64,000 nucleotides of DNA from NCBI RefSeq assembly GCF_900113135.1, contig NZ_FOOH01000016.1, positions 1 to 64,000 of the forward strand, written 5' to 3'. The first letter of the stretch is position 1. Every line of letters starts with the position of its first letter. The position numbers were made by a program, and so were the translations under genes. The notes beneath the pieces are model-generated. The model saw only the letters and a program-made list of their open reading frames with translations, ran no database searches and was not told the DNA's origin. Source of the stretch: Salegentibacter agarivorans. GTDB taxonomy: Bacteria > Bacteroidota > Bacteroidia > Flavobacteriales > Flavobacteriaceae. This document shows positions 50,739-64,000 of this stretch, piece by piece.

Positions 50739-51545
50739 ATGAATAAAAGCATCAAGAATTTTTTAAAGACCATCAGCGCCGGCTCCAGACATTCAGGAAA
50801 AAGCAAAACAAAAAAGAGCAACGGGAAAAGAAGGTCTTCAAAAAGACTGAGTCCTATTACCAAGGAGAAAATTTTGGAAGACATACAAGAGGCTATAAAG
50901 AAAAATGGCTGTAAAAGTATTACGGTAGGTGGTTTTTTCAGGGCTTTTGGTTATAAAAGAAGAGGGACTAAAAATACCGAAGAAATAATTCAGTTTTTGA
51001 ATAAAAACAAACTTCATTCCTATCCTCCACTAACTAAACAGCTCACCTGGAATTCTAAAATCGAAATCTATAGTTTCCCAGTGAAATCCAATGGAGTTTT
51101 TACAAAGAATGAAAAGAAACTTCAGAAATTATTAGATGAAAAAGGTCACTTACAGAAACTAAGCCTTTACAACGTTATTCCTGAACACAGCCCGGACCGA
51201 ACCCGGGACCGAATGGATTTTTTTGCCAGGGATAACGGGCGAAATGTTGTAGTAGAGGTGAAATTAAAAGGAGGTGGAAAAAAAGCAGTAGAACAGGTTT
51301 TAAGGTACGCTGGAATGTTGAAGCAAGAGGATCCTAAAACAGAGATCAGGAAAATACTTATAACCGGTATTCAGGACCAGCATACTGCTAAGGCAATCCA
51401 CGGTATGACCAATTTTGAAAGAGATGGTTTTGAGTGGTACTTGTACTCCTATAATAAAGAAACCGAAGAAATAGATTTTGAAAAAGTGAATTACAGCAGT
51501 TTATTCTCGGTATTCAGCAGCAACAACGGAAACGACATTATTTGA
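50739..51545 (+). CDS. NucS-like PD-(D/E)XK nuclease
   Basis: The 268-residue protein has a lysine-rich N-terminus (residues 1-40), a small helical region resembling a winged helix around 45-95, and a C-terminal nuclease domain with RMDFFAR (D160), VVVEVKLKGG (E173-x-K175) and EQVLRYAG (Q186, Y190), the pattern of NucS/DUF91-like nucleases. It lies between the TerB-like run and the type I restriction operon. DNA cleavage is likely; the target is unknown. Confidence 0.82.
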   Translation: MNKSIKNFLKTISAGSRHSGKSKTKKSNGKRRSSKRLSPITKEKILEDIQEAIKKNGCKSITVGGFFRAFGYKRRGTKNTEEIIQFLNKNKLHSYPPLTKQLTWNSKIEIYSFPVKSNGVFTKNEKKLQKLLDEKGHLQKLSLYNVIPEHSPDRTRDRMDFFARDNGRNVVVEVKLKGGGKKAVEQVLRYAGMLKQEDPKTEIRKILITGIQDQHTAKAIHGMTNFERDGFEWYLYSYNKETEEIDFEKVNYSSLFSVFSSNNGNDII

Positions 51546-51594: not shown

Positions 51595-53118
51595 ATGAGT
51601 TTAAAAACCTGGCTTAGAGATTTAATTGGTTTGGATACCATAGAAAAAAATGTGTTGGATTCACAAAAAAGAATCCTGGATCAATATACTTCAATTACTT
51701 CTGAAATTGAAAAGTTAAAAGATCAATCTACCGAAAATAAAATAAGGTACCTTCAACCCTCTAAAGAGGAAGCAGGCGAAATAAAAAATTCAGAAAATCC
51801 CCAATTGCCACTAGCTAGAAGTTTTTCTATCGATAATAAAAAAAAGGATACAGCAGTCACCTTTACTTTAAAGGAAAATGATCTGGTGGCAAGTGACTGG
51901 CTGGAGTTAAATACCACAGCCGGGCAAAAAAGCAATTGGAGCAACATTCTTTCTTCGGCTGCCGGTTTAGGTGGCCTGACAGGCGCTACAATTCAATCCT
52001 CTAGTGGATTATATACTACTACGGCAACTGCTTCACAATTATCGGCATTAAAAGATGGTGTGGGAACAGCAGTTAGAGTAGAAGGAAAAATAGTGGAACA
52101 TATACCTTTTCATTCCGCGGGGCCTTCAGCATTCACTCCCCTAATTGTTTTTCAAATGGCTTCCATGGTCACAGGCCAGTATTATTTTAATAATCTTTCA
52201 GACCAGTTAAATAAGGTTCTTGATAAACTGAGTAGTCTGGAACGTCTGCATCATATTGAACGTGAATCAAAATTGAAATATGCCTTTTCTTCATTAAAAA
52301 AGTATGCTGACAGAAGATATTTTGTTCTGGAGGATTTTGTCCATCTGGATCATATCTCCTATGATCTCAAGACCATTCGCGAAGAGTATGTGATTAGCAG
52401 TATCGAAAAGATGCAGGAAATAAACAAACTGGTCTCGGCTGTTAGTTCCAATAAAGAAAACGATGAAATTATTTTAGCGGAAGAAGCCAATTTTTTAGAA
52501 AAGGGAAAACATCTTTTTAATAAAGGAATGTCTGGTATTAAAAATTCTAAGGCAGTTAACGTATTGCACTCTGGTCTGGACGGTGCAGGTAACCTTTTGC
52601 GTAGCAGCCAAACCAAGGTAGAAACTATCAATCAGAAAATAGAGGAATTAGGGCTTCTATATGCCCTGAAACTTGCTATTACTGCTGAAGAGTTATACCA
52701 AATGACCCAGCTCATTAAATTAAAAATGAATATGTCTGTAACTAATATGGATGAAGACCGAATAGGGAAAATAGAGGAGCTGAAAGCTGAAATTGAAAAC
52801 TTCAAAAGAAAAAACCTTATTCACAAATCTTTGAAGGATGCAGTGTTGGAGTTTAACCAGAAATTAGACAATCGGTATACCGAATTGAAGCAACAATCCA
52901 TTCTGGCTAAATCAGATATAGACTCTTTAATAAATAATAGTAAAAACTCCTTCGATTCATTTTTTGAAATTTGTGATTCCAGTTACCAAAACCTGGAAAC
53001 CATGAATTCTCAGATTCTTACCGGCTTCAAGGCTGAAAATGAAATTCTGCTTGATAACAGGGGTACAGAACCAAAGTTGTTTATTAAAAAGCCTGTTTCT
53101 GCTAAGGGGACAGCTTAA
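51595..53118 (+). CDS. Unrecognised 507-residue protein with coiled coils
   Basis: The N-terminal 60 residues are helical (KNVLDSQKRILDQYTSITSE), then a glycine/alanine-rich stretch around residues 118-152 (SSAAGLGGLTGATIQSSSG) that could touch a membrane, and a long helical C-terminal part (LNKVLDKLSSLERLHHIERE onward). No family is recognised. It lies 49 bases downstream of the NucS-like gene and 49 bases before hsdM on the same strand and may be co-expressed with either. Confidence 0.6.
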   Translation: MSLKTWLRDLIGLDTIEKNVLDSQKRILDQYTSITSEIEKLKDQSTENKIRYLQPSKEEAGEIKNSENPQLPLARSFSIDNKKKDTAVTFTLKENDLVASDWLELNTTAGQKSNWSNILSSAAGLGGLTGATIQSSSGLYTTTATASQLSALKDGVGTAVRVEGKIVEHIPFHSAGPSAFTPLIVFQMASMVTGQYYFNNLSDQLNKVLDKLSSLERLHHIERESKLKYAFSSLKKYADRRYFVLEDFVHLDHISYDLKTIREEYVISSIEKMQEINKLVSAVSSNKENDEIILAEEANFLEKGKHLFNKGMSGIKNSKAVNVLHSGLDGAGNLLRSSQTKVETINQKIEELGLLYALKLAITAEELYQMTQLIKLKMNMSVTNMDEDRIGKIEELKAEIENFKRKNLIHKSLKDAVLEFNQKLDNRYTELKQQSILAKSDIDSLINNSKNSFDSFFEICDSSYQNLETMNSQILTGFKAENEILLDNRGTEPKLFIKKPVSAKGTA

Positions 53119-53166: not shown

Positions 53167-55575
53167 ATGGCAATTAAAAAATCAGAATTATACAGCTCCC
53201 TTTGGGCGAGTTGCGATGAACTAAGAGGCGGCATGGATGCAAGCCAATACAAAGATTATGTATTGGTAATGTTGTTCGTCAAATACATTAGTGATAAATG
53301 GGCAGGGCAATTGTATGCCCCTATTACCATACCCTCGGGCGCAAGCTTTAAAGATATGGTAGCTCTCAAAGGTAAATCAGACATTGGTGACCAGATCAAC
53401 AAGAAAATTATTGCGCCATTAAAAGAGGCAAATAATCTTTCTGATATGCCCGATTTTAATGATGTATCAAAACTGGGCGATGGTAAAGAAATGGTCGACC
53501 GTCTTACCAATCTGATTGCGATTTTTGAAAAACCGGAACTCGATTTCAGTAAAAACAGGGCTGAAGGTGATGATATATTAGGGGATGCTTATGAATACTT
53601 GATGCGCCATTTCGCTACGGAAAGCGGAAAGAGCAAAGGCCAGTTCTATACTCCTGCTGAAGTAAGTCGTATTATGGCGATGATTATAGGGATTTCAGAT
53701 GCGCAGACCAGTGCCAACACCACTGTATATGATCCTACCTGTGGTTCGGGATCTCTTCTTTTGAGAATAGGTTCTGCCGCTAATACACAGGTAACGCTTT
53801 ACGGACAGGAGAAAGATTCAGCGACTGCCAACCTGGCCCGAATGAATATGATCCTGCACGATTATCCCACAGCGGAAATCAAACAGGGAAATACCTTATC
53901 CAAACCACTATTTGAAGAAAACAACAACCTCAAACAGTTTGATTTTGTAGTAGCAAATCCACCTTTTAGTGATAAACGCTGGAGTAATGGTTTATCGCTT
54001 CCCGATGATGGAAGCTACAACCGCTTTGAAGGCTTCGGAATTCCACCTTCCAAAAATGGTGATTTTGCTTACCTCCTACACATCCTTCGGTCGCTAAAAC
54101 GCCAGGGTAAAGGAGCGGTCATCCTTCCACATGGAGTGCTGTTCAGAGGAAATGCTGAGGCTGAGATAAGGAAAAATCTTATCCAACGCGGGTATATTAA
54201 AGGAATCATCGGTTTGCCGGCCAACTTATTTTATGGTACCGGCATACCCGCCTGTATTATTTTGCTCGATAAGGAAAACGCCGGTAACCGAAAAGCTGTT
54301 TTTATGATTGACGCCAGTAAAGGTTTTATAAAAGACGGGAATAAGAACCGACTTAGGGAGCAAGATATTCGCAGAATTACCGATGTATTCAACCAGGAAA
54401 CCGTAATAGAGGGTTACAGCAAAATGGTCTCTGTGGCGGCCATTGAAGAAAATGAATTCAATCTCAACATACCACGTTATATAGATGCGCAGGATAAAGA
54501 AGATATCCAGGACATAGATGCTCACCTTAATGGCGGTATTCCCAATAAGGATATTGAAGCCCTGGAAAAGTACTGGAAGGTGTATCCCAACCTAAAGGCT
54601 GATTTATTTGAGGAATTTCGCACGGGCTATTCCCGACTGAAAATTGAAAACGACCGGGTAAACAACAGCATTTATAGCCACCGGGAGTTTGAAGCTTTTA
54701 TAAAAGAAATGAATAACCTTTACACCGGTTGGGCGAAAGACACCGAAACCTATCTAAAAGCTTTAGATAAAGATTGTCACCCAAAAGAAGCCATAAATGA
54801 TATTTCTGAAAACTTGTTAGAAACCTACCGGGAGAAGCCACTTATAAATAATTACGATGTGTATCAACATCTTCTTAGCTATTGGCACGAGGTAATGCAG
54901 GACGATATTTACATCATTTCCTATGACGGCTGGAAAGCCGAAACTTATCGCATCCTGATAGAAAACAAACAGAAGAAGATGGTAGATAAAGGCTGGGCCT
55001 GCGATTTGATCCCCAAAGAACTGGTGATCAACAGGTATTTTTCTGAAGAACAAGAGGAAATATCCCAACTAGAAAATACTAAGGAGACTCTCTCTGCTCA
55101 AATAACCGAACTGGAAGAAGAGCACAGTGGTGAAGACGGACTGTTTGCTGAACTTGACAAAGTCAATAAAGGCAATGCTAACAAGCGCATCAAAGAAATT
55201 CAGAAAGAAAAGGATACTGAACTGGAGGAGGAATTAAACGCTCTGAAGAAATACGTTAAACTGCATACGCAATTATCAGCTGCCAACAAGGAGATCAAAC
55301 AAAAAGAAAAGCAACTGGACGATGCTCTTTTTACCAAATATCCCCAGTTAAATGAAGACGAGATCAAAGAACTGGTAGTGAATGACAAATGGCTTAGTAC
55401 TATTAAAAATGCCCTGAGCGGCGAGATAGACCAGATTAGCCAGCGCCTTACCAACCGCATTAAAGAACTGGCAGACCGTTATGACACTCCATTACCAGCT
55501 ATAAACACTGAAGTAGAAGGACTTGAAACCAGCGTAAACGCTCATCTGGAAAAAATGGGATTTGTATGGAACTAA
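53167..55575 (+). CDS. hsdM: Type I restriction-modification methyltransferase subunit HsdM
   Basis: The 802-residue protein has the HsdM N-terminal helical domain, EGDDILGDAYEYL, GQFYTPAEV, SAM motif DPTCGSGSL (residues 189-197) and catalytic NPPF (264-267), showing an N6-adenine methyltransferase. After about residue 480 it has a 320-residue extension with coiled coils (SEEQEEISQLENTKETLSAQ), so it is longer than the usual ~500 residues. It overlaps hsdS by 10 bases. With HsdS it methylates host DNA and with HsdR forms the restriction complex. Confidence 0.96.
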   Translation: MAIKKSELYSSLWASCDELRGGMDASQYKDYVLVMLFVKYISDKWAGQLYAPITIPSGASFKDMVALKGKSDIGDQINKKIIAPLKEANNLSDMPDFNDVSKLGDGKEMVDRLTNLIAIFEKPELDFSKNRAEGDDILGDAYEYLMRHFATESGKSKGQFYTPAEVSRIMAMIIGISDAQTSANTTVYDPTCGSGSLLLRIGSAANTQVTLYGQEKDSATANLARMNMILHDYPTAEIKQGNTLSKPLFEENNNLKQFDFVVANPPFSDKRWSNGLSLPDDGSYNRFEGFGIPPSKNGDFAYLLHILRSLKRQGKGAVILPHGVLFRGNAEAEIRKNLIQRGYIKGIIGLPANLFYGTGIPACIILLDKENAGNRKAVFMIDASKGFIKDGNKNRLREQDIRRITDVFNQETVIEGYSKMVSVAAIEENEFNLNIPRYIDAQDKEDIQDIDAHLNGGIPNKDIEALEKYWKVYPNLKADLFEEFRTGYSRLKIENDRVNNSIYSHREFEAFIKEMNNLYTGWAKDTETYLKALDKDCHPKEAINDISENLLETYREKPLINNYDVYQHLLSYWHEVMQDDIYIISYDGWKAETYRILIENKQKKMVDKGWACDLIPKELVINRYFSEEQEEISQLENTKETLSAQITELEEEHSGEDGLFAELDKVNKGNANKRIKEIQKEKDTELEEELNALKKYVKLHTQLSAANKEIKQKEKQLDDALFTKYPQLNEDEIKELVVNDKWLSTIKNALSGEIDQISQRLTNRIKELADRYDTPLPAINTEVEGLETSVNAHLEKMGFVWN

Positions 55576-56750
55576 CAGCAACCAAATACAAACAAACAGA
55601 AGTAGGCTTGATTCCGGAGGATTGGGAAGTGAGAACACTTGGTGAAATAGCAAAAGTAATAGGTGGTGGTACGCCTAAGACAAATGTCTTACAGTATTGG
55701 AATGGAAATATCTCCTGGTTTACTCCCACTGAAGTCGGTGAGCGAAAATATTTAAAGGAGAGTAAAAGAAAAATATCCTTAGAAGGGCTTCAGAATTCCT
55801 CCGCTCAAATATTGCCTATTGGCACTATTTTACTCACAAGCAGAGCGGGAATTGGAGATTTAGGAATTCTAACCAAAGAAGCATCTACAAATCAGGGATT
55901 TCAATCTTTGTTAGTTTATGAGGACTACTACAATGAATACATTTATTATTTACTCTCTACTTTAAAATCTAAAATTATAAGTAAAGCAAGTGGTAGTACT
56001 TTTCTTGAAATCAGTCCGAGCAAAGTTAAAGAAGTTACTGCAGCCGTCCCCCAAACCCTCACCGAACAGAAAGCCATTGCCAGGGTGCTGAGTGATACCG
56101 ATGCCCTCATCCAGGCTCTTGAAAAAAAGATCGCCAAGAAAGCAATGATTAAAAAAGGCGCAATGCAGGAACTGCTGAAGCCTAAGGAGGGGTGGGAAGT
56201 AAAAACCTTGGAAGAATTATTTTTATTAAAACAAGGGTTGCAATGTCCAGTTGAAGAACAATATGAATTAAAGAAAGAAGGTTTAGTTAGGTTCGTTAGG
56301 ATTGTGGATTTAACCAATAACAAAGAATTACCAAGATATATTAGTAAACCTAATTCCTCTCATATTATAAAAGACACGGATCTCTTTATGGTTAGATATG
56401 GTAGTCCAGGATTATTAGGTTATGGATTTAATGGAGTCATTGCTAATAATTTATTTCGTTTGATCCCTAAAACATCCATTTTCCCAAAATTCTTTTACCA
56501 CCTTTTTACGTATAGAAATGATGATGTCTTAAATCTGTCAAGTTCGACTACAATGGCAGCAATTAGTTTCAGAGCTTTAAATCAAATGGAAATTGAATAT
56601 CCATCTAAAAAGGAGCAAATAGAGACAGCTGAAATTCTTTCTGATATGGACAAAGAAATTGAGCAGCTGGAGCAAAGGCTAGCGAAGTATCAAAATGTAA
56701 AACAAGGAATGATGCAGCAGTTGTTAACCGGGAAAATAAGGTTGGTATGA
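55566..56750 (+). CDS. hsdS: Type I specificity subunit HsdS
   Basis: The 394-residue protein has two target-recognition domains, each ending in a conserved coiled spacer. The first starts LIPEDWEVRTLGEIAKVIGGGTPKT with the typical GWFTPTE-like region, the second starts EGWEVKTLEELFLLKQG. Coils (LSDTDALIQALEKKIAKKA and LSDMDKEIEQLEQRLAKYQ) bring HsdM and HsdR together. It overlaps hsdM by 10 bases and the next gene by 4. Target sequence cannot be told. Confidence 0.95.
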   Translation: MELTATKYKQTEVGLIPEDWEVRTLGEIAKVIGGGTPKTNVLQYWNGNISWFTPTEVGERKYLKESKRKISLEGLQNSSAQILPIGTILLTSRAGIGDLGILTKEASTNQGFQSLLVYEDYYNEYIYYLLSTLKSKIISKASGSTFLEISPSKVKEVTAAVPQTLTEQKAIARVLSDTDALIQALEKKIAKKAMIKKGAMQELLKPKEGWEVKTLEELFLLKQGLQCPVEEQYELKKEGLVRFVRIVDLTNNKELPRYISKPNSSHIIKDTDLFMVRYGSPGLLGYGFNGVIANNLFRLIPKTSIFPKFFYHLFTYRNDDVLNLSSSTTMAAISFRALNQMEIEYPSKKEQIETAEILSDMDKEIEQLEQRLAKYQNVKQGMMQQLLTGKIRLV

Positions 56751-57286
56751 GTGAGGTTTTAGAAGACAAACTACAAATTAATTTTGATGGCAGCTGGTTT
56801 CAATCAAGGTACTATGTATATGTAATAACTGTAGTTCACAACCTTAAAACCTTCTATTATATAGGGCAAACAGGGGATAGAAAATATACCGCTGCTCGTT
56901 CTCCATTCTATAGATTATGGGGGCATTTTAATCCATATAATTCAAAAAGCGGAACAGACTCCCAATTAATAAAGGCTTTATTTAAAAAAGGCATTTTAGA
57001 GAAGATAAAGGGTATAAGTAAAAGACAGATTATAGATAAAGCCTTATTTGAAAAGAAAATTTTAATCGCGACCAGTTTTTATCCAATTGAGGAATTCATT
57101 AACGATGAAACAATAGAACATAAGCGAAAAAGAAAAGTAGCAGAATCTATAGAAACTGCATTGATAAATATGTTTGAAGCAGATATCCTTTTTAATGATT
57201 TAAATAAAATAGGGCATGCGAATGTAAAAATTACCGAAGAGGATCTTCAAATGGCACAGATAATATTTAACGATGTGAAAAAATAG
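56747..57286 (+). CDS. GIY-YIG-like nuclease domain protein
   Basis: The 179-residue protein shows the GIY-YIG order: YVYVI (23-27), YYIGQT (37-42), a conserved R56 and H60, and an acidic metal-ligand candidate (E133 or E136) in the SIETALINMF helix. The family cuts DNA in repair, homing and anti-phage settings. It starts 4 bases inside the hsdS end and so is translationally coupled to the restriction operon, an unusual place for it. Confidence 0.68.
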   Translation: MSEVLEDKLQINFDGSWFQSRYYVYVITVVHNLKTFYYIGQTGDRKYTAARSPFYRLWGHFNPYNSKSGTDSQLIKALFKKGILEKIKGISKRQIIDKALFEKKILIATSFYPIEEFINDETIEHKRKRKVAESIETALINMFEADILFNDLNKIGHANVKITEEDLQMAQIIFNDVKK

Positions 57287-57292
57287 ATTTAA

Positions 57293-58774
57293 ATGATTGA
57301 AGCTAAAGTTTTATATGCAGCAACCAAACAGGATAAAACAATTCAGGCAGAAATAAAGAAGGTAAACGCTGTTCTAAGTCAAGATTTACAAATTCCATAT
57401 TATCAAAGGCCATATAGATGGCAGGAGAAAAATGTTTTACAGCTTTTAGAAGATATTTACGGAAGTTGGAAACAAGTAAAGAGTGCCTATAGAATTGGAA
57501 GCGTTATTTTGTTTGAAAATGAAAAAAGTGATTTTTATGTCATTGATGGGCAACAACGTATTACTACCCTTATATTAATTCTACGGCAGTTAAAATCTGA
57601 GGAAGCAATTACTTTATCTAAGAAGCTTAGCTTCAATCATAGCGATTCAGAAAAGTGTATCCGAAGGAATAATGTTTTTATAGATGATTGGTTATCGGAA
57701 AATGTACGAAAGGAGAAAGCAGATTTTTTAAACTATATAAATAAGTTTTGTGAATTTGTAGAGATAAGAGTTACAAGCCTTTCTGAAGCTTTTCAGATGT
57801 TCGATTCGCAAAATAGCCGGGGTAAAAGTTTGGAAGCCTATAATTTATTAAAAGCCTACCACATTAGAGCAATGGAAGATGAGGAAGCTACAGCAACAGA
57901 TAAAATTGAGAGTGACCGAAGGTGGGAAAATGCTACTCGTTTTGTACTCGACCCATTAAATACAAGAAGCAATCCTCAAGATATTCTTAAAAAACTTTTC
58001 AATGAACAGCTTTATCGTACAAGAGTTTGGAGTAGAAAACAGGCGGCTTATAAATTCAATAAAAATGCTATTGATGAATTTAAAGGACATACCATTAGAT
58101 CGAAAGAGGAAATGGAATATCCATTTCACAATAGTAATTTATTACATTCAGTTGCATTAAACTATTTTAACTCTTTACAAGTTCAGGTAAAAGGGATGAA
58201 ATCCCGGTTTAACCAAAAGCATTTATCCAACGTTAACGATTTTGTTGCTATTAATCAGCCTTTAATAAATGGTAAATCTTTTTTCGATTACGTAGAGTCT
58301 TATGTAGAGATTTACAAACAGCTATTCATTATCAAAAAAGACGATTATTTTCTGAAGGAATTTAAAGGTTTCTATGAGGCACAGTGTAATTACCCTAAAA
58401 GCTATAGAGATGGTGACAAATACTTAAAAGAACTTTATAAATCCCTAATCATTTTAGTTTTTGATAAATACGGAGAAGATGGCGTTAATAAATTATATAA
58501 AGAGCTTTATGCAATTGTATATCGTTTACGCTTAGAAAAACAACAAGTAAAGTATGCAGCAGTAGCTAAGTACCCATCCGATATGAAAATTTTCTCAATA
58601 ATAGAACAAAGCAAGAATTACTTTGAATTGAGAAAATTAACGGAGCTGGCTAAAAAGAGAATTGCATGTTCAAAAGTAGAAAATGTTATCGTCGAATTTT
58701 TTATAGATTTTGGGGTCAAAATCAGAAAAGACAATAACAAAGTAGATTTGTCAAAATTTGATATTGAAGATTAA
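57293..58774 (+). CDS. DUF262 protein without an HNH domain (GmrS-like)
   Basis: The 493-residue protein has a DUF262 (ParB-like NTPase) domain with IPYYQRPYRW near residue 34 and the key motif DGQQR at residues 85-89, and a later FDSQNSRGKSLEAYNLLKAY. The GmrSD-type systems that cleave glucosylated or otherwise modified phage DNA have a DUF262 part and a DUF1524 HNH part. This protein lacks a clear HNH motif at its end. Its stop codon overlaps the start of the next gene by one base; the two are translationally coupled. Confidence 0.85.
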   Translation: MIEAKVLYAATKQDKTIQAEIKKVNAVLSQDLQIPYYQRPYRWQEKNVLQLLEDIYGSWKQVKSAYRIGSVILFENEKSDFYVIDGQQRITTLILILRQLKSEEAITLSKKLSFNHSDSEKCIRRNNVFIDDWLSENVRKEKADFLNYINKFCEFVEIRVTSLSEAFQMFDSQNSRGKSLEAYNLLKAYHIRAMEDEEATATDKIESDRRWENATRFVLDPLNTRSNPQDILKKLFNEQLYRTRVWSRKQAAYKFNKNAIDEFKGHTIRSKEEMEYPFHNSNLLHSVALNYFNSLQVQVKGMKSRFNQKHLSNVNDFVAINQPLINGKSFFDYVESYVEIYKQLFIIKKDDYFLKEFKGFYEAQCNYPKSYRDGDKYLKELYKSLIILVFDKYGEDGVNKLYKELYAIVYRLRLEKQQVKYAAVAKYPSDMKIFSIIEQSKNYFELRKLTELAKKRIACSKVENVIVEFFIDFGVKIRKDNNKVDLSKFDIED

Positions 58775-60612
58775 TGGAAGTAAAAGAGTTAAATAAAAGT
58801 ATTCGAGAAATTTTCCAATGGAATTATGTCGTGCCTTTGTACCAAAGGAATTACGCCTGGTCTGATGATGAAATACATCAATTAATACGAGATATTTATG
58901 AAAATTACATCAAAGACCCAAAGGGCTTTTATTTCATTGGAACATTGGTCGTCCTGAAAAGAAAAAACGGAGATTTTGAAGTCATAGATGGTCAACAAAG
59001 ATTAACTACACTTTCATTAATAGCTAAAAAACTAGATCCAAATCTTCATACTTCAAAATTACAATATGATTCCAGACCTGAAGTTGAAAGTTTTTTAAGT
59101 ACTTACTTTCAAAGAGGTGAAGTAGCAGTTACCACAACAAATCATTTAGTTTCTCATTTTAATGAAGCTATTGAATATATTGAAAATGTTGATTTGGAAG
59201 CAGAAGATTTTAAGACGCTTCATTTTATTGATTATTTGAAGGAAGATTCTATTGATGAATTTAAAAATTATTTTTTCAAACAGGTTCAACTGGTTAAGGT
59301 AGAAATACCTTCTGATACAGATGTTGCCCATTATTTTGAGGTAATGAACAACCGCGGTGATCAGTTAGAAGAACATGAAATAGTAAAAGCCAGGCTTTTA
59401 GATAAAATTCAAGTTTATAAAACTGGATCTGCTCAGTTTTCAAAAATTTGGGATGCTTGTTCACAAATGAATGAGCCTATACAACGCTTATTTAGTAAAA
59501 CCGATAGAGAAAGTTTTTTCGGAAAAGAATACGATAGTTGTTACTTCGAAAGTGATAAGACATCTAAGAAGGAAACAGAAAACCAGGGGAATTCTTCTTT
59601 AAGTATTGAGAGGATTCTAAATGGTGAATCAATATTGATAGATGATGAAGACAGGGATAAAGGAGATGAAGAAGCCTTTGAAGCTATTATTGATTTTCCT
59701 AACTTTTTGATGCATGTTTTAAAGCTATACTTTTTTGATAATAAAGCATTGGATATCCCTTTAAATGGAGACGAACTCTTAAAATGGTTTGAGAAGTTAG
59801 AAGAAAAAATAGATCCACTTGAATTTATTGATAAACTATTATTTTATAGAGTAGTTTTCGATCGTTTCATTGTAACAGTTATTGAAGACGAAAAATCTGA
59901 AGATAACACGAAATGGATATTACATAAGCCTAAACGTTATTATAATGAAAAACAGAATAGTAACCGATTAATTTATAAAAATTCATTTGAGGAACTCCAA
60001 GAGCCAATTATCAAATGTCTTTCCATGTTACAGGTTACCTTTAGGACGAAAAAATATAAGAATTATCTACAGGAAATTTTATTCTGGTTTAATGAGGTTG
60101 ATGATTTAAAAATCCAATCGAAGGAATACTTAAATAAATTGAATGGCTTAGTACTAGAAACTTATAACAGTAATAAAAATTTCGAGAGTCTGATACCACT
60201 TCCTCATTATAATAAGGGAACCAGTACACCTCACTTTCTTTTTAATTTTATAGATTATCTCTATTGGACTGAAAGTCCAGAAAAATTCAATTTTGAATTC
60301 AAATACAGGAATTCAGTTGAACATCACTTGCCGCAATCCTACCGAAATACCGATAATGAGAATGTACTAGATTGCTTAGGTAATTTGTGTTTAGTTAGTA
60401 AAAGTGGTAATTCTAAAATGAATGATGAATCACCAAAAGGGAAGGCAGACCCAAAAGGAAAGTATTATAATGAGAACCTACCTGCAAAACAGCTAACTAT
60501 GTATAAAATAACGAATTCAAATGGTCAATGGGGAGAAGCTGAAATATTAAATCATTACAATGATATTCTGGATCTACTAAATAGAAGAAACGAAATTTTA
60601 CCTATAAAATGA
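58774..60612 (+). CDS. DUF262-DUF1524 (GmrSD-like) nuclease
   Basis: The 612-residue protein combines a DUF262 domain (PLYQRNYAWSDDEI, DGQQR at 72-76, EVMNNRGDQLEEHEIVKARL) with a C-terminal HNH-type domain with VEHHLPQS (E516-H517-H518) and LGNLCLVSKSGNSKMND. This is the GmrSD architecture, associated with restriction of modified DNA. Its start overlaps the previous DUF262 gene and its end overlaps hsdR by 4 bases. The pairing of an HNH-less and an HNH-bearing DUF262 protein is notable. Confidence 0.9.
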   Translation: MEVKELNKSIREIFQWNYVVPLYQRNYAWSDDEIHQLIRDIYENYIKDPKGFYFIGTLVVLKRKNGDFEVIDGQQRLTTLSLIAKKLDPNLHTSKLQYDSRPEVESFLSTYFQRGEVAVTTTNHLVSHFNEAIEYIENVDLEAEDFKTLHFIDYLKEDSIDEFKNYFFKQVQLVKVEIPSDTDVAHYFEVMNNRGDQLEEHEIVKARLLDKIQVYKTGSAQFSKIWDACSQMNEPIQRLFSKTDRESFFGKEYDSCYFESDKTSKKETENQGNSSLSIERILNGESILIDDEDRDKGDEEAFEAIIDFPNFLMHVLKLYFFDNKALDIPLNGDELLKWFEKLEEKIDPLEFIDKLLFYRVVFDRFIVTVIEDEKSEDNTKWILHKPKRYYNEKQNSNRLIYKNSFEELQEPIIKCLSMLQVTFRTKKYKNYLQEILFWFNEVDDLKIQSKEYLNKLNGLVLETYNSNKNFESLIPLPHYNKGTSTPHFLFNFIDYLYWTESPEKFNFEFKYRNSVEHHLPQSYRNTDNENVLDCLGNLCLVSKSGNSKMNDESPKGKADPKGKYYNENLPAKQLTMYKITNSNGQWGEAEILNHYNDILDLLNRRNEILPIK

Positions 60613-63600
60613 GCCAAATAACCGACCTTGAACGCATTACCCAAAACCGGGTGGTCAAACTCTTTCAAAAAGAGTTAAGTTATACGTACCTGGGAAACTG
60701 GGAGGAACGAGAAGGCAACAGCAATATTGAGGAAGCCTTACTTAAGAAATATCTGGAGGAAAAAGAATATTCCACAGCACAGATCAATAAAGCCATTTTC
60801 GAACTGCAACAGGTAGCAACCAATTTCAATGATAGCTTATACACTACAAATAAAGAAGTTTACAATAAGTTACGTTTTGGTGTAAAGGTAAAAGTTACTG
60901 CAAGCGAAAATTATGATACTGTTCACCTCATAAACTGGGAAGATCCAGAAGACAATTATTTTTACATAGCCGAGGAAGTAAACTACAAAGGAGAAAAAAC
61001 CAAACGGCCAGATGTGGTACTTTACATAAACGGGATAGCAGTGGCGGTTTTGGAACTTAAAAGAGGTATTGTAGGTATCGGTGAAGGCATCCGCCAAAAC
61101 ATCACCAACCTACAGGATAGGTTTATAAGACCATTCTTTGCAACCAATCAAATTCTCTTTGCCGGAAATGACTCAGAAGGACTTCGCTATGGCACAATCA
61201 GCAGCCCGGAGAAATTTTACTTAAGCTGGAAAGAAGACGAACAAGACTCTTCCCGCCTTTTGCTTGATAAGTATCTCATTAAAATGTGTTCTAAGGAACG
61301 TCTCATAGAACTCATTCATAAATTTGTTCTGTTCGATGCTGGTATTAAAAAACTGCCGCGGGTTCATCAGTATTTTGGGGTAAAAGAAGCTCGGAAATTT
61401 GTCAATCGCTACGAAGGAGGGATCATTTGGCATACGCAGGGAAGCGGTAAGAGTTTAACTATGGTCTACCTGGCAAAATGGATTTTGGAAAATAATCCAA
61501 AGGCACGTATTGCAATTGTGACAGATCGCGATGAACTCGATAAGCAAATTGAAGGGGTATTTTCAGATGCAGGTGAAGAAATATTTCGAACCAAAAGCGG
61601 TCGGGATTTAATGAGCAAACTAGCGCAGCCTAGTCCGCGTTTATTATGTTCACTTGTACATAAATTCGGTAAGAAAGATGTGGCGAATTTCAATAAATAC
61701 ATCGAGGAACTTAAAGAAAACCCCGTCCAGATATCGGGAGAAATATTTGTATTTGTAGATGAGTGCCATAGAACTCAAAGCGGTAAACTGCACAAAACTA
61801 TGAAGGCGATGTTGCCAAATGCAGTCTTTGTTGGCTTTACCGGTACACCCCTGCTTAAGAAAGACAAACAAACCAGCCTTGAGATTTTTGGGCAATATAT
61901 TCATACTTATAAATTTGATGAAGGTGTGGAGGATAAAGTAATTCTCGACCTTATGTATGAAGCCCGTGATATTGATCAAAAACTAACTTCTCAAAGAAAG
62001 GTAGACGAATGGTTCAAAGCTAAAACCAAAGGTTTGAACGATTACCAGCAGGCAGAGTTGAAAAAGAAGTGGGGTACTATGCAAAATGTATTGAGCAGCA
62101 GGTCCCGAATGGACAAGATAGTTGCCGATATTATCTTTGACTTTTCTACAAAACGGTTGTTGATGTCTTCCAGAAGCAACGCCATTTTGGTGGCAAATAG
62201 CATCTATGAAGCTTGTGAATATTACAAGCTCTTTCAAAAAACCGAATTTAAAAACAAATGTGCCGTTGTCACCAGTTATAACCCTCATACTAGTGATGTT
62301 ACTTCAGAAGATACAGGTGCAAATACTGAAACCCAGAAAGAATCTATTTATAATCTTTATGAAGAAATATTAAAGGGTGTTTCGCCCCAGCCCAATAAAA
62401 CTAAAACAGAAACTTACGAAGACTGGGCAAAGGCTAAATTCATTAAGGAACCTGCTAATATGAAATTGCTCATCGTGGTATCAAAACTCCTTACAGGATT
62501 TGATGCGCCAAGTTGTGCCTATATTTATTTAGATAAAAGTATGCAGGATCACGGTTTGTTTCAGGCTATTTGCCGCACTAACCGTGTGGACGGGGAAGAT
62601 AAAGATTATGGCTATATCGTAGATTATCGCAATATGTTTGACAGTGTGGGGGAAGCCATCTCAGTCTACACCTCTGAACTGGACATGGATAACTTTGAAA
62701 ATGCGGATATAGGCATAATGCTTAAGGATAGATTGGAAGCCGGTAAACAACGACTTGATAATGCAATGGAGGAATTGGCTTTACTGTGTGAGCCGGTTCA
62801 GCCTCCAAAAGGCACACTGGAGTATCAGCATTATTTCTGCGGAAACCCCGAAAACGAGAACGATTTAAAGGATACAGCCTTGAGACGTACGCAACTGTAT
62901 AAAAAAACAGTTGCATTTATTCGCGCTTATGCTAACATAGCTGATGAATTGACCGAGGCTGGTTATTCGTTAAACGAAATAAGAAACATGGAAAAGGATC
63001 TGGATTTCTATGTAAAACTTCGTGATCAGATTAAAAAAGCATCAGGTGAAACTCTGGATATGAAAACTTATGAAGCAGATATGCGGCATTTACTGGATGC
63101 CTATATCCAGGCTGAAGAAGCCGAGGACATAACACCCTTCGAGGGAATGACCCTACTGGACATCATCTCTAACGAAAGTGTAGCCGCCGCAATAAATTCA
63201 TTACCTAAAGGAATAAAAGGAAATAAAGGAGCTGTTGCAGAAACTATTGAAAATAATGTGAGGAGAAAAATCATCAAAGAGCAACATATAGATCCTACAT
63301 TTTTTGAAAAAATGTCTAAGCTTTTGGACGAATTAATTAAAGAGCGGAAATTAAATGCTGTCTCTTATGAAGAATATTTGCAACGTATTGCTGAATTAGC
63401 AAAGCAAACCAATAAAGGATTTGGAGACGATACCCCGGAAACAGTAAATTCGACGGGGATGCGTGCACTGTATAATAATTTAGATCAGGATGAAAATATA
63501 GTTGTAAAGCTGGATCATCAATTAAAACAAAACATTCCTGCCGACTGGCGTGGGCATCCGGCGAAGGAAAATGTTGTAAAGCATACCATTTATAATACAC

Positions 63601-63728
63601 TCTTGCAGAATTTACCAACTGAAAACCCAACACCAGATCAAATAGTGGAAGAGCCACCTGCAGGCTATGGGGTTCCCTCCAAAGTTGAAAAAATATTTGA
63701 AATTATAACCGAGCAACCGGAATATTAA
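60609..63728 (+). CDS. hsdR: Type I restriction endonuclease subunit HsdR
   Basis: The 1039-residue protein has an N-terminal PD-(D/E)XK nuclease domain (RPDVVLYINGIAVAVLELKR: D135, E149, K151), a superfamily 2 helicase core with Walker A WHTQGSGKSL near 272 and DECH box FVDECHRTQ near 389, then KLLTGFDAPSCAYIYLDK and QAICRTNRVD. This is a complete HsdR. It translocates DNA and cuts unmethylated sites. It overlaps the previous gene by 4 bases and the next by one. Confidence 0.96.
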   Translation: MSQITDLERITQNRVVKLFQKELSYTYLGNWEEREGNSNIEEALLKKYLEEKEYSTAQINKAIFELQQVATNFNDSLYTTNKEVYNKLRFGVKVKVTASENYDTVHLINWEDPEDNYFYIAEEVNYKGEKTKRPDVVLYINGIAVAVLELKRGIVGIGEGIRQNITNLQDRFIRPFFATNQILFAGNDSEGLRYGTISSPEKFYLSWKEDEQDSSRLLLDKYLIKMCSKERLIELIHKFVLFDAGIKKLPRVHQYFGVKEARKFVNRYEGGIIWHTQGSGKSLTMVYLAKWILENNPKARIAIVTDRDELDKQIEGVFSDAGEEIFRTKSGRDLMSKLAQPSPRLLCSLVHKFGKKDVANFNKYIEELKENPVQISGEIFVFVDECHRTQSGKLHKTMKAMLPNAVFVGFTGTPLLKKDKQTSLEIFGQYIHTYKFDEGVEDKVILDLMYEARDIDQKLTSQRKVDEWFKAKTKGLNDYQQAELKKKWGTMQNVLSSRSRMDKIVADIIFDFSTKRLLMSSRSNAILVANSIYEACEYYKLFQKTEFKNKCAVVTSYNPHTSDVTSEDTGANTETQKESIYNLYEEILKGVSPQPNKTKTETYEDWAKAKFIKEPANMKLLIVVSKLLTGFDAPSCAYIYLDKSMQDHGLFQAICRTNRVDGEDKDYGYIVDYRNMFDSVGEAISVYTSELDMDNFENADIGIMLKDRLEAGKQRLDNAMEELALLCEPVQPPKGTLEYQHYFCGNPENENDLKDTALRRTQLYKKTVAFIRAYANIADELTEAGYSLNEIRNMEKDLDFYVKLRDQIKKASGETLDMKTYEADMRHLLDAYIQAEEAEDITPFEGMTLLDIISNESVAAAINSLPKGIKGNKGAVAETIENNVRRKIIKEQHIDPTFFEKMSKLLDELIKERKLNAVSYEEYLQRIAELAKQTNKGFGDDTPETVNSTGMRALYNNLDQDENIVVKLDHQLKQNIPADWRGHPAKENVVKHTIYNTLLQNLPTENPTPDQIVEEPPAGYGVPSKVEKIFEIITEQPEY

Positions 63729-64000
63729 TGCAGCAGTTGAAATTGGGAAATATCGAAATTGAAGTAGAACAGAAGGATATTAAAAATATTCATTTAAGTG
63801 TCTATCCTCCCAATGGAAGGGTACGTATTGCCGCACCTCAAAAAATGGATATGGATACCATCCGGGTCTTTGCAATTTCAAAACTTCAATGGATTAAAAA
63901 CCAGAAAAAAGCTTTACTGGAGCAGGAACGGGAACCCCAAAGGGAGTTCATAGAACGAGAGAGCCATTACTTTTTAGGTAAAAGATATTTGCTAAAAATC
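63728..64000 (+). CDS. M48/YgjP-like metallopeptidase, N-terminal part
   Basis: The frame opens at ATG 63,728, whose A is the last base of the hsdR stop codon, and runs off the window. The first 91 residues (IHLSVYPPNGRVRIAAPQKM, then ISKLQWIKNQKKALLEQE, then RESHYFLGKRYLLKI) match the beginning of the YgjP/DUF45 metal-dependent peptidases that commonly follow hsdR in type I operons. The HExxH motif lies beyond the window. Confidence 0.85.
   Translation, partial: MQQLKLGNIEIEVEQKDIKNIHLSVYPPNGRVRIAAPQKMDMDTIRVFAISKLQWIKNQKKALLEQEREPQREFIERESHYFLGKRYLLKI

What the first reader, a model, noticed from the sequence alone, without database searches (positions are those of the whole stretch)
53167..64000. 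Type I restriction operon with three extra nuclease-type genes inserted between hsdS and hsdR
Seen: hsdM, hsdS, a GIY-YIG-like gene, two DUF262 genes, hsdR and a YgjP-like gene follow each other with overlaps of 1 to 10 bases or a gap of 6, so they behave as one translation unit. Known: type I systems attack unmodified DNA, whereas DUF262-DUF1524 (GmrSD) proteins attack modified DNA. Inferred: the locus combines both, and the extra genes might be controlled by or work with HsdM/HsdS. It may be a multi-layer defence system.
Basis: partly seen in the sequence, partly recalled or inferred. Interest (0 to 1): 0.78.

Follow-up and report, generated by a model that had tools for sequence, protein, structure and literature searches.

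The report
TgvAB-like cassette inside restriction operon
A bacterial DNA-cutting defence operon carries, between two of its genes, a second two-gene defence that probably attacks phages with chemically disguised DNA; this nesting is already known from cholera bacteria, and here the inserted pair behaves like an exchangeable cartridge.

Summary
The gene order is real: hsdM, hsdS, a small GIY-YIG-like ORF, two DUF262 genes, hsdR and a YgjP metallopeptidase, overlapping by 1-10 bases or 6 bases apart. The DUF262 genes are a fixed pair: A is GmrSD_N+DUF7834, B is GmrSD_N+GmrSD_C; B follows A in 46 of 49 related loci, the other three ending at a contig edge. [quoted passage not shown] The seven genes are not one conserved machine. 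Window and G078 share HsdM and HsdR (77, 80%) but not HsdS, A or B (38, 35, 40%); window and Kordia share A and B (80, 76%) but HsdM only at 27%. Of 32 HsdR-anchored loci 30 carry other genes in this slot, among them type IV enzymes and CBASS-, Pycsar- and Thoeris-like modules. A new member of a known kind. Open points: type IV cargo was seen in 8 of 12 long-HsdM loci and 0 of 20 short-HsdM loci (post hoc), and two Pfam-supported but mutually unrelated GIY-YIG genes stand directly before such pairs elsewhere.

The parts
53167..55575 (+). hsdM, type I N6-adenine methyltransferase subunit (802 aa, long-HsdM class)
   Evidence: N6_Mtase E 1.6e-104, HsdM_N; PADLOC MTase_I 1234 bits; NPPF and DPTCGSG
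55566..56750 (+). hsdS, type I specificity subunit with two target-recognition domains
   Evidence: Methylase_S E 2.6e-44, two stretches; genome hits at 55614-56135 and 56187-56678
56747..57286 (+). 179-aa orphan ORF with a GIY-YIG-like motif (YVY...YYIGQT)
   Evidence: motif only; no GIY-YIG family hit in Pfam/PHROGs; found in 1 of 299 family genomes, its own; in 395 phylum genomes its own plus one weak match (E 2.1e-4)
57293..58774 (+). DUF262-A (TgvA-like): GmrSD_N plus DUF7834, no nuclease domain hit
   Evidence: Pfam; QR, DGQQR at 85, FxxxN at 170; AF2 pLDDT 85.9; Foldseek best hits 9jfl (DndBCDE-DndI entry) and SspE
58774..60612 (+). DUF262-B (TgvB-like): GmrSD_N plus GmrSD_C His-Me nuclease
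   Evidence: Pfam; QR, DGQQR at 72, FxxxN at 188, H517/H518 and N537/N546/N550
60609..63728 (+). hsdR, type I restriction/translocation subunit
   Evidence: SWI2_SNF2, T1R_D3-like, HSDR_N; PADLOC REase_I 1455 bits; nuclease and motor motifs
63728..64000 (+). YgjP-like zinc metallopeptidase (237 aa; continues past the window to C12:64441)
   Evidence: YgjP-like E 3.3e-60; HELVH

Best explanation
A type I restriction-modification operon whose S-R slot holds a TgvAB-type, two-protein, modification-dependent (type IV) restriction cassette plus one orphan small gene. Likely working: HsdM2S methylates a bipartite adenine site in the host; HsdR with HsdM2S translocates and cuts DNA lacking that mark; A and B together sense phage DNA with modified bases through their DUF262 NTPase domains, and the His-Me nuclease of B cuts it. 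A is a nuclease-less paralogue that B needs. The two layers share an operon but act largely independently and cover unmodified and modified phages. Shown here: gene order, domains, motifs, A-B pairing, cassette-like exchange. Inferred from TgvAB: modified-DNA targeting and the need for both proteins. Unknown: the role of the GIY-YIG-like gene and of YgjP.
For: Domains and motifs. Same two-domain architectures in a Vibrio parahaemolyticus plasmid pair, an Aliarcobacter plasmid pair and the G078 pair. B downstream of A in 46 of 49 loci, the other three cut at contig ends; A and B distances correlate (Mantel r 0.975, 0 of 1000 permutations as high, 45 pairs). Fold search of A: the five matches with E up to 0.001 are 9jfl (DndBCDE-DndI) and SspE chains, both of modification-sensing defences. 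Cassette behaviour: window versus G078 DNA homology covers hsdM and hsdR-YgjP but not the interior apart from two short stretches of hsdS; window versus Kordia DNA homology lies within the A-B pair alone. Precedent: TgvAB between hsdS and hsdR, active against Tevenvirinae, both proteins needed, HsdR nuclease not needed (PMC11411939).
Against: No activity, methylation or phage data for this organism. Direct comparison with VC1767/VC1766 was not made (sequences not held). Plasmid relatives of A in Gammaproteobacteria share only about 30% identity, so the substrate may differ. The A fold matches are moderate (TM 0.26-0.42 to the query, rmsd 8.7-20.4). In V. cholerae tgvAB alone protected 10- to 100-fold less than the full cluster against several phages (paper). 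The exact EH..PQ form of the nuclease site is in 27 of 55 B-type proteins; 24 more show variants such as EHHMAQ or EHFYPV, and 4 lack the region. The GIY-YIG-like gene is unexplained.
Confidence: 0.77

Rival explanations
1. Guard model, as for PrrC: the A-B pair (and the GIY-YIG-like gene) are held silent by the type I complex and released when a phage anti-restriction protein disables it, giving a back-up or suicide response.
For: Same operon, overlapping genes; the abstract of PMC2610378 (seen in the listing) states that PrrC is silenced by a linked type I enzyme and activated by a phage anti-restriction factor. tgvAB alone protected less than the full cluster (PMC11411939).
Against: 37 of 49 loci show no hsd gene in the fetched flanks; closely related pairs sit with distant type I families; tgvAB alone does protect E. 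coli (PMC11411939).
Confidence: 0.07
2. A variant of the main reading, not exclusive of it: the pair recognises a different mark, such as DNA phosphorothioation or 7-deazaguanine, rather than sugar-modified hydroxymethylcytosine.
For: The best fold matches of A are the phosphorothioation-sensing DndI entry and SspE; the related two-protein system GrwAB also acts on 7-deazaguanine phages (PMC12137116, passages).
Against: Domain make-up, order and slot match TgvAB. DndI and SspE may simply be the solved members of the GmrSD fold.
Confidence: 0.25
3. All seven genes form one obligate multi-component defence machine.
For: Tight overlaps across all genes.
Against: No other locus examined has the same seven genes; slot content differs between loci; the 179-aa gene was found in 1 of 299 family genomes, its own.
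Confidence: 0.03
4. Pure passenger model: the slot collects selfish or decaying genes without benefit.
For: Slot cargo is highly variable; 3 of 74 cargo proteins match Y1_Tnp; the A gene of L051 is split into two ORFs.
Against: A and B reading frames are intact here, with DGQQR in 48 of 48 A-type and 55 of 55 B-type proteins over 400 aa; A and B stay together in several phyla.
Confidence: 0.05

Closest known systems
TgvAB of Vibrio cholerae VPI-2 (PMC11411939, text parts 1-4 of 7 read)
   Same: Two adjacent DUF262 genes, the second with DUF1524, lying between hsdS and hsdR of a type I operon in that order.
   Different: An additional GIY-YIG-like ORF before A; a YgjP gene after hsdR here (not mentioned in the parts read). 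A is about 30% identical to Gammaproteobacterial plasmid relatives; the V. cholerae sequences were not compared.
GrwAB (PMC12137116, passages; PMC12409362, passages)
   Same: Two DUF262 proteins, one with DUF1524, modification-dependent.
   Different: GrwA with the nuclease comes first and GrwB has a long C-terminus; the window has the reverse order. L089, L093 and L097 in the same slot look somewhat GrwAB-like (DUF262 gene of 611-619 aa followed by one of 822-853 aa; the 853-aa one has GmrSD_N), but no GmrSD_C was found in the first gene of L089.
RloF, R-linked ORF F of Campylobacter jejuni (described in PMC4619093, passages)
   Same: DUF262 gene between hsdS and hsdR.
   Different: One DUF262 gene named there, a pair here.
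DarTG2 embedded in a type I operon of enteropathogenic E. coli, with RptR and M48 peptidase (PMC12255303, passages)
   Same: Another defence system between hsdS and hsdR, metallopeptidase gene downstream; the authors call the site a potential recombination hotspot.
   Different: Different cargo; repressor gene at the front.

Membership tests
Type I restriction-modification | HsdM with N6-adenine methylase motifs | tested here: met
Type I restriction-modification | HsdS with two target-recognition domains | tested here: met
Type I restriction-modification | HsdR with PD-(D/E)XK nuclease and SF2 motor | tested here: met
Type I restriction-modification | methylates a bipartite site and restricts unmodified DNA | not testable with these tools
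   needs SMRT or nanopore methylome and transformation assays
TgvAB-type two-protein GmrSD system | two adjacent genes, A with DUF262 only, B with DUF262 plus DUF1524 | tested here: met
   (A also has DUF7834); B follows A in 46 of 49 loci, 3 cut by contig ends
[quoted passage not shown]
   DGQQR 85 (A) and 72 (B); FxxxN 170 and 188; H517/518 with N546/N550, close to the H571-N602 spacing reported for TgvB
TgvAB-type two-protein GmrSD system | placed between hsdS and hsdR | tested here: met
   not universal in the family
TgvAB-type two-protein GmrSD system | sequence homology to VC1767 and VC1766 | not tested
   sequences not held; same Pfam architectures in a V. parahaemolyticus plasmid pair, A about 31% identical
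TgvAB-type two-protein GmrSD system | both proteins needed; targets modified DNA | not testable with these tools
   needs phage assays
GrwAB | nuclease-bearing DUF262-DUF1524 gene first, long GrwB second | tested here: not met
   window has the nuclease gene second and a 493-aa partner first
GIY-YIG nuclease (179-aa ORF) | match to a GIY-YIG profile or solved structure | tested here: not met
   no GIY-YIG hit in Pfam, PHROGs or PDB
GIY-YIG nuclease (179-aa ORF) | GIY...YIG motif followed by conserved Arg and Glu | tested here: inconclusive
   YVY...YYIGQT present; the Arg/Glu rule is recalled and was not tested; model pLDDT 43

The most novel reading that the evidence does not exclude
In Bacteroidota the stretch from hsdS to the start of hsdR is an exchange site at which whole defence cassettes (TgvAB-, GrwAB-like and McrBC-type, CBASS-, Pycsar- and Thoeris-like) are swapped within a constant hsdM / hsdR-ygjP frame, and small homing-type nucleases next to the DUF262 genes (GIY-YIG in the window, L031 and L010; a homing-endonuclease-like gene in L029 and its relative in L099) either drive that exchange or are a third subunit of the restriction system.
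Probability: 0.15. Interest if true: 0.62.

Novelty: new member of a known kind. Interest (0 to 1): 0.36.

Why it matters
It shows the V. cholerae TgvAB layout in an unnamed host whose pair has its nearest named relatives mostly in Flavobacteriaceae, and shows at DNA level that frame and cassette have separate histories. That makes the S-R slot of type I operons a practical place to look for new defence genes, and offers matched comparisons (window versus G078, window versus Kordia) for testing whether cargo and frame interact.

Tried and rejected
Seven-gene system: rejected, since no other locus examined has the set. Phage carriage: no relative of A in phage records at E 1e-5 or in viral contigs (two short patterns only), none of the small ORF in viral contigs or plasmids. 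Structure of the 179-aa ORF: single-sequence model failed, so no fold search was made with it. Internal promoters or terminators: the scan found 42 promoter-like sites against 35.0 expected (sd 5.7) and 6 terminator-like against 7.9, so it is uninformative. The weak phylum hit of the 179-aa ORF (L134, E 2.1e-4, two stops in frame) was set aside as possible chance; one search translated only the flank before the match, so the match itself was not examined.

Limits of the counts. The 49 loci come from a short-pattern scan seeded with the window protein and favour near relatives; several have short flanks, so 'no hsd gene' (37 of 49) is an upper bound. The 12 with an hsd-like gene in the flanks are L004-L008, L012, L016, L029, L031, L035, L046, L049; in the tree L012, L016 and L049 were counted as without hsd (L016 has the pair 26 bases after an hsdR; L049 has hsdM, hsdS and hsdR about 3 kb downstream), and L046 was not in the tree. 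The 37 HsdR-anchored loci include three genomes that each gave two; a 38th (L058) was dropped because its contig starts inside hsdR, and 5 of 37 had no hsdM in the stretch. The long-HsdM class includes L091, in which no hsdS was found. Genes were called by a simple longest-ORF rule (60 aa or more), so starts and small genes are uncertain. Type IV genes were sought by our DUF262 profiles and by clustering with the McrBC pair of L088. For the short-HsdM loci 74 of the 76 cargo proteins of L101-L122 (genes between hsdM and hsdS included) were scanned in Pfam, with 25 of 35 matched families shown, and 3 of the 8 cargo proteins of L087. The contrast of 8 of 12 with 0 of 20 was noticed after seeing the data and ignores kinship of the loci.

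Literature. Searches found the precedents cited; none was aimed at GIY-YIG genes beside TgvAB or at HsdM subclasses, so I make no claim that these points are not in print. The parallel TgvAB study by Gomez and Waters was seen only as a citation in the papers read.
Full report
What is there. The window is the first 64,000 bases of contig C12 (99,677 bases) of a 4.30 Mb genome in 56 contigs. Seven genes on the + strand overlap by 1-10 bases or are 6 bases apart: hsdM, hsdS, a 179-aa ORF, DUF262-A, DUF262-B, hsdR and ygjP (ygjP completed from L003). HsdM, HsdS and HsdR are near full length by profile with motifs present in HsdM and HsdR. The genome has three other places with both HsdM-type and HsdS-type hits (C24, C34, C50) but only these two DUF262 genes.

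The DUF262 pair. A (493 aa) is GmrSD_N plus DUF7834; B (612 aa) is GmrSD_N plus GmrSD_C. A pattern scan of the genome-contig collection with A gave 49 related loci. In 46 of 49 a B homologue follows; in the other three (L033, L046, L052) A runs off the contig. A and B distances correlate at r 0.975 over 45 pairs, 0 of 1000 permutations as high. DGQQR is kept in 48 of 48 A-type and 55 of 55 B-type proteins longer than 400 aa. The exact nuclease pattern E[HN]..P[QN] is in 27 of 55 B-type proteins; 24 more show a variant (for instance EHHMAQ, EHFYPV) before a GN[LVI] stretch, and 4 (L004's extra DUF262 gene, L089, L093, L097) lack that stretch. The same two architectures occur in pairs on a Vibrio parahaemolyticus and an Aliarcobacter plasmid and in G078. 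A tblastn search found A relatives in 887 plasmid records, 851 of them Klebsiella, all under 60% identity. The model of A (34 sequences, pLDDT 85.9) matches the DndBCDE-DndI entry 9jfl and SspE best, both from DNA-modification-sensing defences.

The known system. Vizzarro et al. (PMC11411939; parts 1-4 of 7 read) describe two genes between hsdS and hsdR of a V. cholerae type I operon: TgvA with DUF262, TgvB with DUF262 and DUF1524. Both are needed against Tevenvirinae; an HsdR nuclease mutant of the cluster protects like the wild type, though tgvAB alone protects 10- to 100-fold less against several phages; the five-gene layout was found 79 times in 41,142 genomes and tgvAB alone 1,341 times, Bacteroides fragilis included. 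Machnicka et al. (PMC4619093, passages) had noted type I genes as the most frequent defence neighbours of GmrSD and cite RloF between hsdS and hsdR. The RptR paper (PMC12255303, passages) reports DarTG2 in the same slot with an M48 metallopeptidase gene downstream, and calls the site a potential recombination hotspot. The window therefore fits a published kind.

Cassette and frame. In G078 (same family) HsdM and HsdR are 77% and 80% identical to the window, while HsdS, A and B are 38, 35 and 40%. At DNA level homology covers hsdM (with a gap inside it), fails over the interior except for two short hsdS stretches, and resumes 21 bases into hsdR, running to 8 bases past ygjP. Conversely, the A-B pairs of Kordia (L004) and Wenyingzhuangia (L031) are 80/76% and 75/73% identical to the window, but their HsdM are 27% and 25% identical and the pair lies after hsdS in a different operon layout; the DNA homology with Kordia runs from 33 bases into A to 9 bases before the end of B. 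L004 has an EcoEI-type HsdR gene at the front. On the tree of A the hsd-slot label (10 of 45 rows) needs 5 changes, at least 4 forced by well-supported branches, against a mean of 9.2 in shuffles: clustered, but not of single origin. GC is 0.30-0.33 over the cargo, 0.42 in hsdM and 0.39-0.40 in hsdR; the genes upstream of the operon are at 0.33-0.37, so it is rather the hsd frame that stands out, and genome-wide GC was not measured.

The slot in other operons. HsdR relatives were found in 3 of 299 family genomes at E up to 1e-100 and 34 of 395 class genomes at 1e-80, the window's own genome counted in both. Of 37 fetched loci, 32 had hsdM in the stretch; 30 of these 32 have one or more same-strand ORFs between hsdS (or hsdM, in L091) and hsdR, on average 2.5 over the 32. 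DUF262 genes are in 6 (L086, L089, L093, L096, L097, L099), a TgvAB-like pair in 1 (L086). McrBC-type pairs are in 2 (L088, L095; Pfam for L088, clustering for L095). All 8 lie in the 12 loci with long HsdM, none was found in the 20 with short HsdM (Fisher p 4.7e-5, post hoc, kinship ignored). Other cargo between hsdS and hsdR: a SMODS/AGS_C cyclase with a SLATT effector in L122 (CBASS-like), a cyclase with PycTM in L114 and AGS_C with PycTM in L119 (Pycsar-like), ThsB-type TIR, TIR and SLOG proteins in L087 (Thoeris-like), SIR2 in L101 and Schlafen/AlbA in L121. Fic, RhuM, patatin and kinase domains occur among cargo between hsdM and hsdR, position not always resolved. A same-strand gene with HExxH follows hsdR directly in 36 of 41 loci examined.

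The 179-aa gene. It has a YVY...YYIGQT motif but no GIY-YIG profile support, and was found in 1 of 299 family genomes, its own. Yet directly before the pair L031 has a GIY-YIG gene by Pfam (PF01541, E 9.5e-6) and L010 another (PF20815, E 4e-20), and L016 has a T5orf172 gene between hsdM and hsdS. These proteins show no convincing similarity to the window's. L029 and L099 have genes related to each other in that place (cluster of 2), the L029 one matching homing-endonuclease families of PHROGs. Six other small genes near pairs scanned (L009, L012, L013, L018, L024, L035) gave no Pfam hit; the remaining upstream genes were not scanned in Pfam, only with a regular expression that misses L010 and L031. 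Two supported cases, or three with the window, are suggestive, no more.

Verdict. A TgvAB-type restriction cassette in the variable slot of a type I operon: very likely a second, largely independent layer against modified phages. New member of a known kind. The more open points are the preference of type IV cargo for one HsdM subclass and the recurrent small nucleases.

Noticed in passing
window 63728-64000, and 36 of 41 HsdR loci: A same-strand HExxH gene of 230-249 aa (YgjP-like in the window by Pfam) follows hsdR directly in 36 of 41 loci, often with an overlap; it looks like a fixed part of these operons, perhaps for turnover of HsdR (guess).
   Followed up: partly
window 50739-51545: 268-aa protein with weak NucS / PD-(D/E)XK similarity, part of a run of same-strand genes that ends 48 bases before hsdM (51595-53118 has no Pfam or PADLOC hit).
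   Followed up: no
L003 11485-19900 (C12:64484-72899): After ygjP a 243-aa gene with a weak HEPN hit, then on the other strand a DEAD helicase, a NERD-UvrD-type protein and a UvrD-PDDEXK protein: possibly another defence module.
   Followed up: no
L004 4909-6549: A third, separate DUF262-type gene (546 aa, by our profile) between the hsdR-like gene and hsdM in Kordia, besides the A-B pair after hsdS.
   Followed up: no
L031 13310-15238: AbiJ-type ATPase gene (AbiJ_NTD3, AAA_15) 19 bases after the pair in Wenyingzhuangia.
   Followed up: no
L101, L102, L104, L106, L108, L109, L111, L113, L115, L116, L119, L121, L122, upstream of hsdM: A 180-220-aa ORF scoring with the HsdS profile stands before hsdM in 13 short-HsdM loci (in L102 with one gene between); could be a half HsdS or a cross-hit.
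   Followed up: no
L008 13333-16479: hsdR is split into three ORFs in this metagenome-derived genome while the A-B pair is intact; real decay or assembly error.
   Followed up: no
L089, L093, L097: A second kind of DUF262 pair in the same slot (611-619 aa followed by 822-853 aa), reminiscent of GrwAB in order and size.
   Followed up: partly
L087, L114, L119, L122, between hsdS and hsdR: Multi-gene Thoeris-like, Pycsar-like and CBASS-like modules sit in the same slot.
   Followed up: partly
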